Virus record (IMG/VR): IMGVR_UViG_3300027573_000108
Coordinates: 1 to 24,764 of that record
Length of the DNA stretch: 24,764 nucleotides
Origin: a virus
Reading direction: 5' to 3' (one strand)
Shown here: positions 2,655-14,637 of the stretch, in pieces
Numbering within the stretch: position 1 is the first letter of the stretch
Layout of the letters: the number at the start of each line of letters is the position of its first letter
Made by a program: the position numbers and the translations under genes
The notes under the pieces: model-generated
Told to the model about the DNA's origin: nothing
The model's database searches: none
Seen by the model: only the letters and a program-made list of their open reading frames with translations

Positions 2655-3886
2655 CCTGATACGACCCAGTTGCGCACGCCTACGGCTGCACGCCACGCAA
2701 GTGCGCGCGCGATAACCGTGTCATCATGCAATCCATCAGGCGCTGCATAGCTTACTCGCTGCGTATTGCCTGCCACCTTTGACTCGAATGCGTGGAGCTC
2801 TGCCGTTGCAGCCGGCACATCCAGCCACCTGCATTCCGCGCGCTCGAAGGCCAATGCAAGCGATTGGATGAGCGGTGGCTTGGATGCTGCCGTAGTCGTG
2901 AAGGCAAACACCGGCAGCCCATCACGCTGCAATGCTTCGATATTTGGTGAGCCAATCGAGTTCTCTTCCGCTTCGATATGACTCACAGCCCAGCGCCGCG
3001 CGAGTGCATCCAGGCGCCCACGCTGAAATGCCCATCCAATCTTGTTGAACCGATCGAGGGCAACCTCTTCACGACACGCGCTGCATAGCACGCTCAAGGC
3101 CGTAGAATCGTTTTTTTGCCCCCAGTCAACTCCCATTACCATCCTGTGCCCTTGATGCTCTGCAGGCTGCGCATTCTTCGGTGCAGTCAAATTCGCCACA
3201 ATGTTTCGAAAAACTGATCCCTCACCCTCAAGGAACTCCGCCATAATCTCCTGCCGATACGCCTCATCGCTCAGGTCAGATGTAATGTCATCAAGCGCGG
3301 CCCTGCTCAGATGCGGATTATCGAAGCTCGTGAAGTGCCATGCCTGCCACCGCCCGGTCGTGTCCGATTGCGCTTTCTGATAGAGATTGTGGAACCAGTT
3401 CCTGCGCCTTGGAGTACTGATAAACCAGGCATCGCCGTTGTTATCGAGCAACATCGGTGCGCCCACCTTGTCCCACGCATCCGGTGCGAGGAGCGCGCAT
3501 TCATCGAGCACCAGAAAATCCGCGTGATCCCCGCGCAACGTATCGGCATCGCTTGCAGTTTTCACCTTGATGCGCCCGCCATTGTGCGGAAACAACATAA
3601 TCCTGCGCTGCTCATTCTTCTCCACTACGCCAAACTCAGTGAGCTCATAGAGCCATTCCTTCACCTTGTCCCAGAAGGCGTCGGCCTGATCCTGCGTAGT
3701 CGAAGCAAGCAGAACCCTGCGCCCCTCGAGCATCTTCGTTACCGACACTCGAGCTGCAAGCGTAGTCTTGCCCGCCCTGCGCCCCGCATTAACAACCATA
3801 CGCTTCGCCGTCGATTTCGCTATCAACGACTGCTTCTGGTGGAGCTGCGGCAAGCGCACGGTCAGTTGTTTGGCTGTCGCTATCAT
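2651..3886 (-). CDS. terL: Terminase large subunit (TerL)
   Basis: A 411-residue DNA-packaging motor. The start chosen is the ATG at 3886 (MIATAKQ), preceded by AGGA six bases upstream. ATPase motifs: Walker A NAGRRAGKT at residues 33-41, Walker B FLVLDE at 124-129, and a coupling STP at 157-159. The nuclease domain opens with MGVDWGQKNDST (D254) and ends with GLHDDTVIARALA (D388/D389), the expected acidic metal-binding residues of the RNase H-like fold, with a further acidic cluster in HIEAEENSIG. It packages genome DNA into the prohead together with the small subunit encoded immediately upstream. The gene overlaps that upstream gene by 98 bases in another frame, an unusually long overlap, and overlaps portal by four. 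Confidence 0.95.
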   Translation of the reverse strand: MIATAKQLTVRLPQLHQKQSLIAKSTAKRMVVNAGRRAGKTTLAARVSVTKMLEGRRVLLASTTQDQADAFWDKVKEWLYELTEFGVVEKNEQRRIMLFPHNGGRIKVKTASDADTLRGDHADFLVLDECALLAPDAWDKVGAPMLLDNNGDAWFISTPRRRNWFHNLYQKAQSDTTGRWQAWHFTSFDNPHLSRAALDDITSDLSDEAYRQEIMAEFLEGEGSVFRNIVANLTAPKNAQPAEHQGHRMVMGVDWGQKNDSTALSVLCSACREEVALDRFNKIGWAFQRGRLDALARRWAVSHIEAEENSIGSPNIEALQRDGLPVFAFTTTAASKPPLIQSLALAFERAECRWLDVPAATAELHAFESKVAGNTQRVSYAAPDGLHDDTVIARALAWRAAVGVRNWVVSG

Positions 3887-11316: not shown

Positions 11317-11804
11317 ATCACCGAATGCTTGCGCTTGTGCCATTCCGGTTCGCCAAGTGGCTCGAGCTTGCGAATCTCAAGCGGTGCTGCACTGCACGCG
11401 CACGGTCTGACAAACGTATTCTCTCCGAAAGAGTCCGGTACTTTGCGTGCAAGCGTCTGCCAGCCACTCCCTTCGCAGTACCAGCACACCTCGCCATGTT
11501 CAAGCTTAATCGGATCTGGCCTGTTGGCACGCTCTGCTTCCCGGATCGCATGCCAGGCTGCAATGAGCTCCTGCGGCTGCAGCAATGCCTTTACCACGCG
11601 GTTGCGAATTGCGTGCAGCTCGCACTCTTCGATCCGGTCAGCTGGTATCTGCGCAAGTATGCGCTGCCAGTCGCGGATCTCGTCAGCCAGGGCTGCGTCG
11701 CTCAAAGCTGCAACTCCTGCCCGCCGTCGCGCTGCGCTAATTATCCCGCTCAAGACTTGCGGCAACGCGTTTTGCCTGGGCGCTTGTGCCTCTGTCGTCG
11801 TCAT
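11298..11804 (-). CDS. Hypothetical protein with Cys cluster, possible replication accessory
   Basis: A 168-residue protein from the ATG at 11804 (MTTTEAQAPRQ), with AGGGG about ten bases upstream; an ATG at 11813 is an alternative. The first 95 residues are helical (SDAALADEIRDWQRILAQIP, ELIAAWHAIREAERA). The C-terminal part has CWYCEGSGW and, later, RPCAC, which could form a four-Cys zinc site. It overlaps the end of the replisome organiser by 68 bases. Position right after that gene suggests a primosome or helicase-loading partner, but no AAA+ motif is present and the family is not recognised. Confidence 0.6.
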   Translation of the reverse strand: MTTTEAQAPRQNALPQVLSGIISAARRRAGVAALSDAALADEIRDWQRILAQIPADRIEECELHAIRNRVVKALLQPQELIAAWHAIREAERANRPDPIKLEHGEVCWYCEGSGWQTLARKVPDSFGENTFVRPCACSAAPLEIRKLEPLGEPEWHKRKHSVIWERAE

Positions 11805-12459
11805 TTGCGCCATTCCCCTTTCGTGGCTCCTCACGGTTGAGCCAGTTGATCAAGCGATCTCGCGTTGGCTCCTGTCCGTGCTCCTTGCACCATCGGCGCA
11901 TCTTCGCGCAGACGTGGCGCACTTTGATTTCGCCGTATGCAGGATCGGCCTGGAGTTCATCGAGATACTCGTCAGGAAAAAGATTAGAAACAGCAGAAGC
12001 AGAAGCAGGTTCTTGCACGGTGCTCGCCGCGGATGCCTCCAGCTTCTCCTTCCCTTCCCTTCCTACCCCTTCCCTTCCCCTCCTACCCGGCGGGACTGGT
12101 TCTTGCACGGTGCTTGCACCGTTCTCGCACGGTGCTGGGGGTTCGGGGAGGGTACTCGGGGGTTCTTTGATGTGGAAATGTTGGTGTTTCCAGAAGGTTC
12201 GAATGTGAATGTATCGCTTCCCTTCTGCCTCATATCGCGTGATGAATCGCGCTTCGGCCAGCTCGCGCAACAGGTATTCGACATTTACGCTGTCATAAGC
12301 CATAAGCTCAACTTTCAGTTTGCGCGGCCTGTCCTCTAATCTTCCTTCGCGATCCGCCTGGGTGAAGAGACCGGCAAATAGCCATCTCGCTTCGAACGAG
12401 AGATCCCCGATATCTTCATCCGTAAACATTTGCGGCTTGATGGTCCGAATACGACCCAC
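11737..12459 (-). CDS. Phage replisome organiser / replication initiator-like protein
   Basis: A 240-residue protein with a GTG start, opening MGRIRTIKPQMFTDEDIGDL and LSFEARWLFAGLFTQADREG, the hallmark of phage replisome-organiser N-terminal winged-helix domains (about residues 1-100). A Pro/Gly/Arg-rich linker follows (105-165). The C-terminal helical domain (FPDEYLDELQADPAYGEI, MRRWCKEHGQEPTRDRLINW) resembles a helicase-loader contact domain. It should melt the origin and recruit host helicase. The linker-coding DNA contains iteron-like repeats and a G-rich tract, as in lambda O-type genes that carry the origin inside. There is no strong Shine-Dalgarno sequence. Confidence 0.75.
   Translation of the reverse strand: MGRIRTIKPQMFTDEDIGDLSFEARWLFAGLFTQADREGRLEDRPRKLKVELMAYDSVNVEYLLRELAEARFITRYEAEGKRYIHIRTFWKHQHFHIKEPPSTLPEPPAPCENGASTVQEPVPPGRRGREGVGREGKEKLEASAASTVQEPASASAVSNLFPDEYLDELQADPAYGEIKVRHVCAKMRRWCKEHGQEPTRDRLINWLNREEPRKGNGANDDDRGTSAQAKRVAASLERDN
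12008..12136. other. Candidate replication origin: iteron-like repeats plus G-rich tract
   Basis: GGTTCTTGCACGGTGCT occurs at 12008-12024 and 12098-12114, with a third copy differing at two bases at 12120-12136. Between copies 1 and 2, 12043-12088 is almost pure pyrimidine on plus, with repeated GGGAA units on minus. The repeats lie inside the replisome-organiser gene, where lambdoid phages keep their origin. Copies 1 and 2 encode STVQEP, while copy 3 is read in another frame (APCEN). Confidence 0.5.
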
Positions 12460-12520: not shown

Positions 12521-13192
12521 TTATACAGCGGCACGGGCCTGCTTAAGAACTGCAGCGAGGAGCCCGTGCAACGTTCGCAATCGTTCAATGAGTAAGGGAT
12601 TGTTTACATCAAGCAAATCTGATTCGATCAAATCGATCAGCTGATTCGCATAAAATGACTGCTGCATGCCACCTAATCGCTTATTGGTTTCCTGCTGTTT
12701 CTTGTTTAGCTGCTTCCCAGCCATATGCGCTATTGTCCGCTTAAGCGGAATTGGCGCACCAGCACGTGTGGTACCAAACCCGCGCACCAAGTCCTGATAG
12801 CGTACTGATGGAATCTCCACCGTTTCGCAAAGGGTATCCTGCTTGATACCTAATTCCCGCGATCGCTGGATGATGTGCCGGATGTCGTATGGAGTGTATC
12901 GCCGACCGTGGTGTGTATTCGCTGCCGCCGCACGAAGAAACAAATCCTGATCATCTTTGACAGTGACGAGCTCGCATTCGATCTCATCCACGCCTGCCTT
13001 CTCACAAGCACGTACGCGAGTGAAACCATCAATGATTCGCAGCGTTTTAGCGCATACAAGGATGGGCGGAAACTTCGCACCTAAAGCTAAACTCTCAGCG
13101 TATTGCGCTGCCGTAACTTCATCCGTTTGTGATCGTGGATAGAATGCGTAATCACGAATCAGGGATGCTACTTCTAATTTTTTAGTGCTCAT
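12521..13192 (-). CDS. ParB-like protein (ParB/Srx N-terminal domain plus HTH)
   Basis: A 223-residue protein with AGGAG five bases before its ATG. Residues 5-95 resemble the ParB N-terminal domain: FPPILVCAKTLRIIDGFTRVRA matches the GERR-like box region (read in two pieces) and NTHHGRRYTPYDI matches the third box. Residues 100-145 (IRHIIQRSRELGIKQDTLCE) look like a helix-turn-helix. The C-terminal third is helical and could dimerise. No ParA partner is present, so it may be a regulator or DNA-clamp protein rather than a partition protein. Its upstream region is 700 bases of pentanucleotide array. A parS-like palindrome exists at 20890-20905. Confidence 0.7.
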   Translation of the reverse strand: MSTKKLEVASLIRDYAFYPRSQTDEVTAAQYAESLALGAKFPPILVCAKTLRIIDGFTRVRACEKAGVDEIECELVTVKDDQDLFLRAAAANTHHGRRYTPYDIRHIIQRSRELGIKQDTLCETVEIPSVRYQDLVRGFGTTRAGAPIPLKRTIAHMAGKQLNKKQQETNKRLGGMQQSFYANQLIDLIESDLLDVNNPLLIERLRTLHGLLAAVLKQARAAV

Positions 13193-13221
13193 GTTGTCTC
13201 CTCTGTTGAATAGTTAAAACC

Positions 13222-13886
13222 AAGCCTCGCCTTGCCACGCCGGACCATACCCCGCCACGCCCTACGGTGCCTCAAACTTGAAAATTCATAAGAACCAAAA
13301 CCCCGCCTTACCTTGCCTTACCCAGCCTCACCCCGCCGTACCTAGCCAAGCCAAACCAAGCCGCAACTCATTACAATCTCAGAATGCCAGAACAAATTCC
13401 CTGCCTTACCTTGCCTTACCAGACCCCGCCAAACCGCGCCAAACCCCACCTAGCCAGGCCCCGCCATGCCTTAATTCTATGAAAACGAAATCCCTGCCCT
13501 ACCTCGCCCTACCTAGCCAGGCCTCGCTCTGCCACGCCTCGCCGGACCGTGCCCGGCCTCACCCGGCCTCACCCGAAATTTATGAAAACGAAAATCCCTG
13601 CCTCGCCGCACCTCACCTCACCACACCCCACCGTGCCGCGCCTGACCCGGCCCAGCCAAACCATACCCCGCCTCACCCAATCGTAAAACTTATGACTGCG
13701 AAAACCCTGCCCTGCCTCACCGCGCCTAGCCTTGCCTGACCCCGCCCAGCCAGACCCCGCCGGAAACTTATAAATGCAAAGAAACCCTGCCATACCTTGC
13801 CGCGCCCGACCTCACCACGCCCTGCCTAACCCAGCCGAGCCACGCCAGACCGCGCCTCACCATGCCATACCCCGCATCGCCTCGCC
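13222..13886. repeat. Seven blocks of pentanucleotide units (GGYNN on minus, NNRCC on plus)
   Basis: Blocks of contiguous 5-base units, counted by hand: 13222-13261 (8), 13297-13362 (13, with one extra base), 13401-13470 (14), 13494-13573 (16), 13598-13677 (16), 13707-13761 (11) and 13787-13886 (20). In every block nearly all units keep GG on the minus strand with Y at position 3, while positions 4-5 vary. AT-rich spacers of 23-38 bases separate the blocks. Most share a pattern near TTATGAAAACGAAAATC on plus, and five blocks begin with CTGCC. The whole 13193-13891 interval holds no convincing gene. Confidence 0.9.
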
Positions 13887-13891
13887 TCAAC

Positions 13892-14473
13892 TCATTGAAC
13901 TAAAACAAATCTCCCATAAGGCCCACCACCACCCGCGCCTGGCCGGTATTCCCCAATGCCCATTCGCTGACCTGCATCCACCAACAACCCGCGCAAAATA
14001 TCTTCGATCTGTGGCACGAGTTCGATGTCACCGAGTATGTCGAACTTAACCATCCAGCCAGGGTATAGTGGCCGACCCCGCATTATTGCCTTTCTTTGAA
14101 TGACCACTCTGCGCACGTCTACCTCATATGCGGGTAATGGCTGGCCTGTTGCGGGATCGAGCAATACGACCAGTTCGGATGGTTCAATTTGAATATGGCT
14201 CATTGCCTGCTTTAGCGGCACTCTGCCAATCTTCTGAAAACTGGCACAAGCCATGATGCTATTCCGAATTGAAATAGACCTGATACAAAGGTTGCCTTGC
14301 TCGTTGCGATACGTGCCGCGTTCTGCTTCCTCTACAGGATCGTAGATTGGCTTCATGGCACCACGAGCCACAGGAACAGCATGGCCGTTCATTGACCCCA
14401 TCGGGTTGTGCGTCATTAATCCCGGTGGCAAACCTTGAATCGAAAAAGAGAATCGTTGGATTGTGTCTAACAT
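13892..14473 (-). CDS. Unknown phage protein with RAMP/Cas7-like sequence features
   Basis: A 193-residue protein with an ATG start and GGAGAG ten bases upstream. It has an N-terminal strand (QRFSFSIQGLPPG), a middle segment CIRSISIRNSIMACASF resembling the small-residue/basic helix of RAMP proteins, beta-rich stretches (YEVDVRRVVIQRKAI, WMVKFDILGD) and a C-terminal helix followed by a Gly-rich loop and strand (GIGEYRPGAGGGGPYGRFVL). That last element resembles the glycine-rich loop of Cas7/Cas6-type RNA-binding folds. I do not know a characterised homologue, and the RAMP idea is inference. The gene is bracketed by the pentanucleotide array: one block upstream, seven downstream. Confidence 0.6.
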   Translation of the reverse strand: MLDTIQRFSFSIQGLPPGLMTHNPMGSMNGHAVPVARGAMKPIYDPVEEAERGTYRNEQGNLCIRSISIRNSIMACASFQKIGRVPLKQAMSHIQIEPSELVVLLDPATGQPLPAYEVDVRRVVIQRKAIMRGRPLYPGWMVKFDILGDIELVPQIEDILRGLLVDAGQRMGIGEYRPGAGGGGPYGRFVLVQ

Positions 14474-14507
14474 TTGCTATAATCTCTCCAATCTGTTGAA
14501 AGTGTTC

Positions 14508-14530
14508 GGGCGTCTAATGGCGCCCTTTTT
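14508..14530 (+). terminator. Hairpin with T-run reading on plus
   Basis: GGGCGTC (14508-14514), loop TAAT, GGCGCCC (14519-14525), then five T's (14526-14530) followed by CTTT. One pair is G-T on plus, which becomes A-C on minus, so the stem is stable only as plus-strand RNA. It points against the surrounding minus-strand genes and sits 35 bases upstream of the start at 14473. It would stop plus-strand transcripts coming from the array. Confidence 0.55.
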
Positions 14531-14567
14531 CTTTAGAAACCAGCTTAATCGCTCATTGCAGAAATCC

Positions 14568-14637
14568 TTGCCTCGCCTCGCCATACCTTGCCGTGCCTGA
14601 GCATGCCGCACCGAGCCACACCATGCCGGGCCCCGCC
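14568..14637. repeat. Eighth pentanucleotide block
   Basis: Fourteen units in exact 5-base register with one irregular unit (14598-14602). It has the same GGYNN pattern on the minus strand as the main array 680 bases to the left. It lies immediately after the stop of the small membrane gene ending at 14644 and upstream of the gene starting at 14473. Its flank AATCTCATAA resembles array spacers. Confidence 0.85.

What the first reader, a model, noticed from the sequence alone, without database searches (positions are those of the whole stretch)
13222..14637. 112-unit pentanucleotide array (GGYNN) flanking a RAMP-like gene and leading into a ParB-like gene
Eight blocks of 5-base units keep GG in strict register with only one single-base slip and two or three irregular units, while positions 4-5 vary freely. 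Such register is not expected from simple slippage, which would give identical units, and points to selection on spacing. GG every 5 bases is half a helical turn. In minus-strand RNA or ssDNA it also matches a two-tetrad G-quadruplex pattern (GG-N3-GG-N3). The array surrounds a protein with a RAMP-like glycine-rich loop and forms the 700-base region before a ParB-like gene. Possible roles: a loading platform for a filament-forming protein that contacts about 5 nt per subunit (annealing protein, ParB clamp, or the RAMP-like protein), a structured leader RNA, or a DNA-packaging or replication element. I have an impression of similar G-rich short-period arrays in other temperate phages but recall no assigned function.
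Basis: partly seen in the sequence, partly recalled or inferred. Interest (0 to 1): 0.92.

Follow-up and report, generated by a model that had tools for sequence, protein, structure and literature searches.

The report
RNA-guided anti-rival system in phage
The strange five-base array is a set of eight guide RNAs that sit beside the protein using them, a recently described viral relative of CRISPR called VIPR that lets one phage find and silence chosen DNA, probably genes of rival phages; this is a new, divergent example from an uncultivated phage.

Summary
The array is real: 114 GGNNN units in runs of six or more on the minus strand, against at most 12 in 1,000 shuffles. It is a VIPR locus (Viral Interference Programmable Repeat), described in an April 2026 preprint (PMC13142463). 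The "RAMP-like" gene (13892-14473) is a Vipr protein. A family profile hits the solved SUSP1 Vipr at E=1.9e-45, the window protein alone at 3.6e-5, and the confident AlphaFold model matches Csm3/Cas7. The eight blocks are vrRNAs: GGY/NN tracts, most followed by a recurrent AT-rich tail.

From the DNA pattern alone I recovered 120 array-bearing viral stretches. 86 encode a Vipr, against 0 of 118 other fragments. All 90 loci holding both have array and gene on one strand. Decoding one guide of Pseudomonas phage LESphi2 with the published one-base-skip rule gave 73 exact hits, with natural variants differing only at skipped wobble bases.

For this window no target was found. Guide B1 spells a motif of phage DnaB-like helicases, a lead only. 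The window Vipr is a lone deep branch (33% identity at most) with a ParB-fold downstream gene in an order shared with two other loci: a candidate accessory gene. G-quadruplex, packaging and replication roles have no support.

The parts
13892..14473 (-). vipr gene, 193 aa, RAMP-fold Vipr protein (phrog_4652); C-terminal G-loop DAGQRMGIGEYRPGAGGGGPYGRF
   Evidence: profile vs PDB 36pp SUSP1 Vipr E=1.9e-45, single sequence 3.6e-5; AF2 pLDDT 91.5; Foldseek Csm3/Cas7 E=8.8e-6
14563..14637 (-). vrRNA B1 tract, upstream of vipr; NN = GG CC AT GT TC GC AT CA AC AA AT GA GA (AA); one irregular unit GCTCA
13777..13886 (-). vrRNA B2 tract and start of its tail; NN = GA GA GG AT AT GA GC CT GT TC TG TA AG GT GA CG GC AA AT (AG)
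13702..13761 (-). vrRNA B3 tract; NN = GG CT TG GG CA AA TA GC GA AG (AG)
13593..13677 (-). vrRNA B4 tract; NN = GA GG AT TT TG CG CA GC AC GG GT GA GA GC GA (AG)
13489..13573 (-). vrRNA B5 tract; NN = GA CG GA CG AC CC GA GT AG GA CT TA AG GA AG (AG); one irregular unit AGCGA
13396..13470 (-). vrRNA B6 tract; NN = AT GG CT TA GG TT GC TT GG CT AA AA AA (AG)
13298..13362 (-). vrRNA B7 tract; NN = TT TT TT TA AC GG GA TG AA AA AA (GG)
13217..13271 (-). vrRNA B8 tract, ends just before the ribosome-binding site of the ParB-like gene; NN = AC AG GT GG AT CC GT AA GA TT; one irregular unit CGTAG
13574..13607 (-). example of the recurrent AT-rich 3' tail (after B4): GGCAGGGATTTTCGTTTTCATAAATTTC; similar tails follow B2, B3, B5 and, less closely, B1, B6, B7
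   Evidence: alignment A2; no consensus fold
12521..13192 (-). ParB/KorB-fold protein, 223 aa, candidate vipr-accessory protein (vap)
   Evidence: PHROG 1033 E=9.7e-9; N-terminal part of the AF2 model matches ParB/KorB/Noc E=4e-6 to 4e-5; homologues follow vipr and arrays in L099 and L149
14508..14525 (-). hairpin GGGCG/CGCCC between the B1 tail and the vipr start codon; role unknown (possible B1 end or leader element)

Best explanation
A VIPR locus of a temperate, uncultivated tailed phage. The minus-strand operon is transcribed through eight vrRNAs, each a tract of about 9-20 YNNGG repeats, most ending in a short AT-rich tail. The Vipr RAMP binds the RNA, contacting GGY in each repeat, and presents the NN pairs. 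The RNP then binds double-stranded DNA whose sequence reads NN-x-NN-x (one base skipped per repeat, usually a codon wobble base) and represses transcription there, most likely in competing phages or satellites. The ParB-fold gene is probably its accessory protein. Shown here: the anatomy, family membership, the array-Vipr association, RNA-sense orientation, and the skip code on a relative (LESphi2). From the paper: RNP formation, DNA binding, repression. Inferred for this window: expression, targets, role of the ParB-like protein.
For: Array and register. Vipr homology to PDB 36pp; RAMP fold. 86 of 120 array stretches found by DNA pattern alone encode a Vipr, 2 more with a looser ORF cut, against 0 of 118 control loci; same strand in 90/90. 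In bacterial genomes the four loci with a Vipr hit all have high-entropy arrays (H 3.5-4.1 bits), while most pattern hits without one are low-entropy repeats. Known VIPR-bearing phages (a Felixounavirus relative of SUSP1; LESphi2) show the same GGY/NN tracts beside vipr. LESphi2 vrRNA decoded with the 1-nt skip: 73 exact hits, all spelling NGPAQRAFA in the sense frame, two variants differing only at skipped bases. NN pairs across 71 loci are best explained by codon positions 1-2. Phage terminase, portal and integrase in the window. Preprint PMC13142463.
Against: No target of the window guides was found in IMG/VR. The window tail has no confident fold, unlike the SUSP1-clade tail. B2 is longer than the published 9-16 repeats. 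The window Vipr is a lone long branch that I could not assign to one of the seven types. No expression data. The preprint is not peer reviewed.
Confidence: 0.95

Rival explanations
1. The GGY array is a non-guide scaffold: the RAMP coats the phage's own mRNA (protection, translational control, autoregulation) and NN is unconstrained filler.
For: Arrays sit in 5' leaders between stop and start codons of the same operon, and the GG register alone would suffice for coating.
Against: NN composition follows codon positions 1-2. A LESphi2 guide decodes to an exact, wobble-tolerant match in rival prophages. The paper shows programmable repression needing NN pairing.
Confidence: 0.03
2. Neutral expansion by slippage of a GGYNN microsatellite, kept by chance.
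For: Simple GGYNN repeats of this type exist in many actinobacterial and other genomes without Vipr.
Against: Those are mostly low-entropy; the window array has 31 kinds of unit, entropy 4.67 of 5 bits. One-strand coherence and Vipr linkage.
Confidence: 0.005
3. G-quadruplex, DNA-packaging or replication element acting as DNA.
For: GG-N3-GG spacing permits two-tetrad quadruplexes in principle.
Against: Strict association and strand agreement with an RNA-binding RAMP family; the published function is in the RNA. Not tested biophysically here.
Confidence: 0.01
4. A VIPR locus whose guides mainly serve the phage itself (superinfection exclusion of close relatives, or self-regulation) rather than attacking unrelated rivals.
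For: The paper notes some vrRNAs aimed at other VIPR systems and at lysogeny regulators.
Against: No window guide stood out against the window or the other held loci under any skip rule: in the 0-, 1- and 2-base tests 18 of 20 was the usual top score, and the 3-base test was cut short.
Confidence: 0.2

Closest known systems
VIPR of Escherichia phage SUSP1 (Vipr, PDB 36pp; type II, vap1)
   Same: Vipr RAMP; vrRNAs of GGY/NN repeats, one upstream and several downstream of vipr; phage-encoded
   Different: Window Vipr is a separate deep branch; eight vrRNAs; AT-rich tail without a clear hairpin or pseudoknot; ParB-fold neighbour
VIPR of Pseudomonas phage LESphi2 and the P. fulva prophage clade
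   Same: Same repeat code beside vipr in a temperate phage; used here as positive control (L297)
   Different: Tails are GC-rich hairpins; neighbours are not ParB-like
VIPR-like loci L099 (IMG/VR, GC 39%) and L149 (uncultured Fibrobacteres MAG)
   Same: Order array - vipr - array - ParB-like gene (L099 carries an extra short Vipr-like ORF in between); ParB-like proteins 24-42% identical to the window's
   Different: Different guides; their Viprs do not group with the window's with support
Type III CRISPR Csm3/Cas7 (RAMP backbone)
   Same: RAMP fold with G-rich loop, oligomerises on guide RNA
   Different: No CRISPR repeats, no contiguous spacer; minimal locus; no sequence-level match to Csm3 in PDB at E<=1

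Membership tests
VIPR | Vipr protein homologous to SUSP1 Vipr | tested here: met
   profile E=1.9e-45, single sequence 3.6e-5
VIPR | RAMP fold with glycine-rich loop, no elaborations | tested here: met
   AF2 pLDDT 91.5; Foldseek Csm3; 193 aa; GxGxxRPxxxGRF motif
VIPR | Noncoding tracts of 9-16 YNNGG repeats with conserved GGY and hypervariable NN flanking vipr, same strand | tested here: met
   eight tracts, roughly 9-20 units, B2 longer than the published range
VIPR | Invariable 3' tail after each tract | tested here: met
   GGCAGGGWTTTYG...CATAAATTT recurs after B2-B5, less closely elsewhere
VIPR | Tail with conserved secondary structure (pseudoknot in the SUSP1 clade) | tested here: inconclusive
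   no consensus structure; single folds weak
VIPR | Accessory vap gene in the locus | tested here: inconclusive
   ParB-fold gene in the same order in 3 loci; paper text does not mention ParB
VIPR | NN code with 1-nt skip recognising dsDNA | tested here: inconclusive
   met for LESphi2 by sequence; window guides gave no full target
VIPR | vrRNA expressed, bound by Vipr, represses target | not testable with these tools
   needs RNA-seq, pull-down and reporter assays
VIPR | Carried by phage, prophage or related element | tested here: met
   portal, terminase, integrase in the window; virus record
Type III CRISPR-Cas | CRISPR repeat-spacer array with contiguous spacers and several cas genes | tested here: not met
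   no such repeats; no cas-family hit above cut-off among the ten neighbouring proteins scanned

The most novel reading that the evidence does not exclude
The ParB/KorB-fold protein is an undescribed kind of Vap. The Vipr-vrRNA complex would act as a programmable loading site for a ParB-type DNA-binding (perhaps CTP-switch sliding) protein, spreading silencing from the RNA-guided site along the rival's DNA. Three deep-branching VIPR loci share this arrangement.
Probability: 0.25. Interest if true: 0.8.

Novelty: new member of a known kind. Interest (0 to 1): 0.62.

Why it matters
VIPR is the only described system in which a guide RNA addresses DNA with a gapped code, and it is proposed as the ancestor of CRISPR RAMPs. 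This locus adds a divergent Vipr with eight guides and a ParB-fold partner. The survey reaches the family from DNA pattern alone and reproduces the skip code on an independent guide, which gives independent computational support to an unreviewed preprint. Degenerate GGY/NN arrays can be used to find VIPR loci and to read out which rivals a phage has fought.

Tried and rejected
Rfam: no match. Pfam: no family for Vipr. BLASTN of the array against phages: none. Skip-rule test on held loci (2 Mb of mostly unrelated sequence): no difference between 0-, 1- and 2-base skips; the 3-base run was not completed because of time; wrong database rather than wrong rule, since LESphi2 works. Exact guide scans of IMG/VR: B2 10 units 0 hits, B4 9 units 0, B2 other 8 units 2 unrelated, B5 8 units 4 copies of one site with no extension. 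B1 8 units 39 hits: 19 lie in frame in ORFs of over 400 aa with the helicase motif [I]VSAIQTNR (one checked: DnaB_C E=1.2e-18), others in SbcC-like and ImmA-like frames or unrelated; best helicases match 23 of 28 guide bases, so lead only. The ParB model is confident only for the N-terminal part. G-quadruplex idea not pursued once the RNA-guide identity was clear. A tryptophan-attenuator-like 5-nt RNA-binding protein was considered from memory and dropped.

Full report
Observation. The minus strand of 13217-14637 holds eight tracts of five-base units with GG in strict register and a pyrimidine third. Runs of six or more units total 114 units; in 1,000 dinucleotide-preserving shuffles the maximum was 12. 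Thirty-one kinds of unit occur, entropy 4.67 of 5 bits. Four irregular units keep the register. One tract (B1) lies upstream of the 13892-14473 gene and seven (B2-B8) lie between it and the ParB-like gene.

The association. They span 39-73% GC and, with a single minor exception, each has its arrays on one strand. Searching their ORFs with the window protein and iterating once converged on a family present in 87 sources: the window and 86 of the 120 stretches. Two more appear when shorter ORFs are allowed; 118 other viral loci (1.04 Mb) have none. In all 90 loci holding both a counted array and the gene, they lie on the same strand, and arrays often start within 20 bases of the gene's stop codon. 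The one nominal mismatch printed there, L037, had no array passing the filter. In bacterial genomes the same pattern mostly finds simple repeats without the gene. The four loci with the gene all have high-entropy arrays, although some high-entropy arrays there lack it.

Identity. The family is PHROG 4652, function unknown, with no Pfam entry. AlphaFold2 with 64 relatives gives pLDDT 91.5, and Foldseek finds Csm3/Cas7 RAMPs (E=8.8e-6). A profile search of the PDB finds exactly one sequence, SUSP1 Vipr, entry 36pp (E=1.9e-45); the window protein alone also finds it (3.6e-5). [quoted passage not shown] It describes VIPR: a phage-encoded ancestral RAMP, vrRNAs of GGY/NN repeats with a 3' tail, DNA recognition through NN with one skipped base, and transcriptional repression of rival phages. 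A search for further papers using these terms found only this one.

Anatomy of this locus. Each tract is followed by an AT-rich stretch; B2-B5 share a recognisable tail (GGCAGGGWTTTYG, then CATAAATTT), B1, B6 and B7 resemble it less, and B8 runs straight into the ribosome-binding site of the next gene. No consensus fold was found for the tails. Other VIPR loci here carry hairpin tails (L012, L018, L011, L028), with stems that change on both sides while the fold is kept between copies in one genome (by inspection). The window Vipr is a lone long branch, at most 33% identical to any other, and not inside the clade of SUSP1-like and LESphi2 Viprs (support rough). The gene after the arrays has a ParB fold: KorB, Noc and ParB are the best structural matches, on the well-predicted N-terminal part. 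Homologues follow vipr and an array in L099 and L149. I take it as a candidate vap. The main text of the paper names DNA-binding vaps but not ParB.

The code. As a positive control I took a vrRNA of Pseudomonas phage LESphi2 (L297), wrote its NN pairs with one skipped base, and scanned IMG/VR: 73 exact matches. All spell NGPAQRAFA in the sense frame of one small phage gene; 71 are one sequence and the two others differ only at skipped wobble positions. Scans of window guides of similar specificity gave 0 to 4, apart from B1. Across 71 VIPR loci, NN pairs are best modelled by codon positions 1-2 of the sense strand (33 loci, plus 15 for its complement; 126 bits or more better in total than any other phase). 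Both results are independent of the preprint's data and agree with it.

Targets of this window. None was established. Exact scans of B2, B4 and B5 sub-guides found nothing convincing. The B1 core gave 39 hits, of which 19 lie in frame in ORFs of over 400 aa with the motif [I]VSAIQTNR; one was checked and is a DnaB-like helicase. B1 reads G-P-[IM]-V-S-A-[IM]-[HQ]-T-[NK]-[IM]-[DE]-[DE]; the best helicases match 23 of 28 bases. The highest score, 24 of 28 in L264, is not in a long frame of the right phase. B1 may therefore target a helicase gene of an unsequenced rival, but I hold this as a lead.

Verdict. The system is now described, so this is a new member of a known kind, with a divergent Vipr, a different tail and a possible new accessory protein. 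Shown here: anatomy, homology, association, strand, and the code on a relative. Inferred: expression, targets and the ParB-like protein's role in this phage.

Noticed in passing
L249: 892-1716 and 3762-4355 (Alphaproteobacteria MAG, JAPORR010000056.1): Two Vipr genes in one bacterial locus (E=4.8e-38 and 5.2e-45), with degenerate arrays.
   Followed up: no
L099: about 3425-3613: A short ORF (61 aa) resembling the N-terminus of Vipr (E=0.011) between two vrRNA tracts, near the ParB-like gene; possibly a truncated second Vipr.
   Followed up: no
L018, L012, L011, L028: spacers between array blocks: vrRNA tails fold as hairpins whose stems differ between copies in one genome while pairing and loop (e.g. 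TCTGAAATTACGG in L018) are kept.
   Followed up: partly
L036: after the arrays (minus strand of the locus): Tails hold tRNA T-arm-like hairpins (GCGTGGTTCGACTCCACGC), suggesting tRNA-type processing of these vrRNAs.
   Followed up: no
L098, L104, L053, L025 and similar: Blocks of 9-12 units separated by a register shift of a few bases (GGCAGGC...), fitting the 'staggered arrays' mentioned in the preprint.
   Followed up: no
L298-L370: A small gene (MAWDRNDPLNILALQLDGELRAAADFCHGYNGPAQRAFARHIQ...) in many prophage contigs is the decoded target of a LESphi2 vrRNA.
   Followed up: partly
genome loci L131-L250 without Vipr: Simple GGYNN microsatellites are frequent in actinobacterial and other chromosomes, unrelated to VIPR; naive pattern searches need an entropy filter. 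A few high-entropy ones (e.g. L181, L185) were not explained.
   Followed up: partly
L017, L041, L107, L108 and about 28 other array loci: Degenerate arrays with no Vipr found in the fragment; many are short fragments or single tracts, some (L041, L107, L108) are long and could hold orphan vrRNAs or a more divergent Vipr.
   Followed up: partly
window 12043-12088: Short GGAAG/GGGTA pentamer run inside a coding region (ORF 11737-12459); not part of the VIPR arrays.
   Followed up: no
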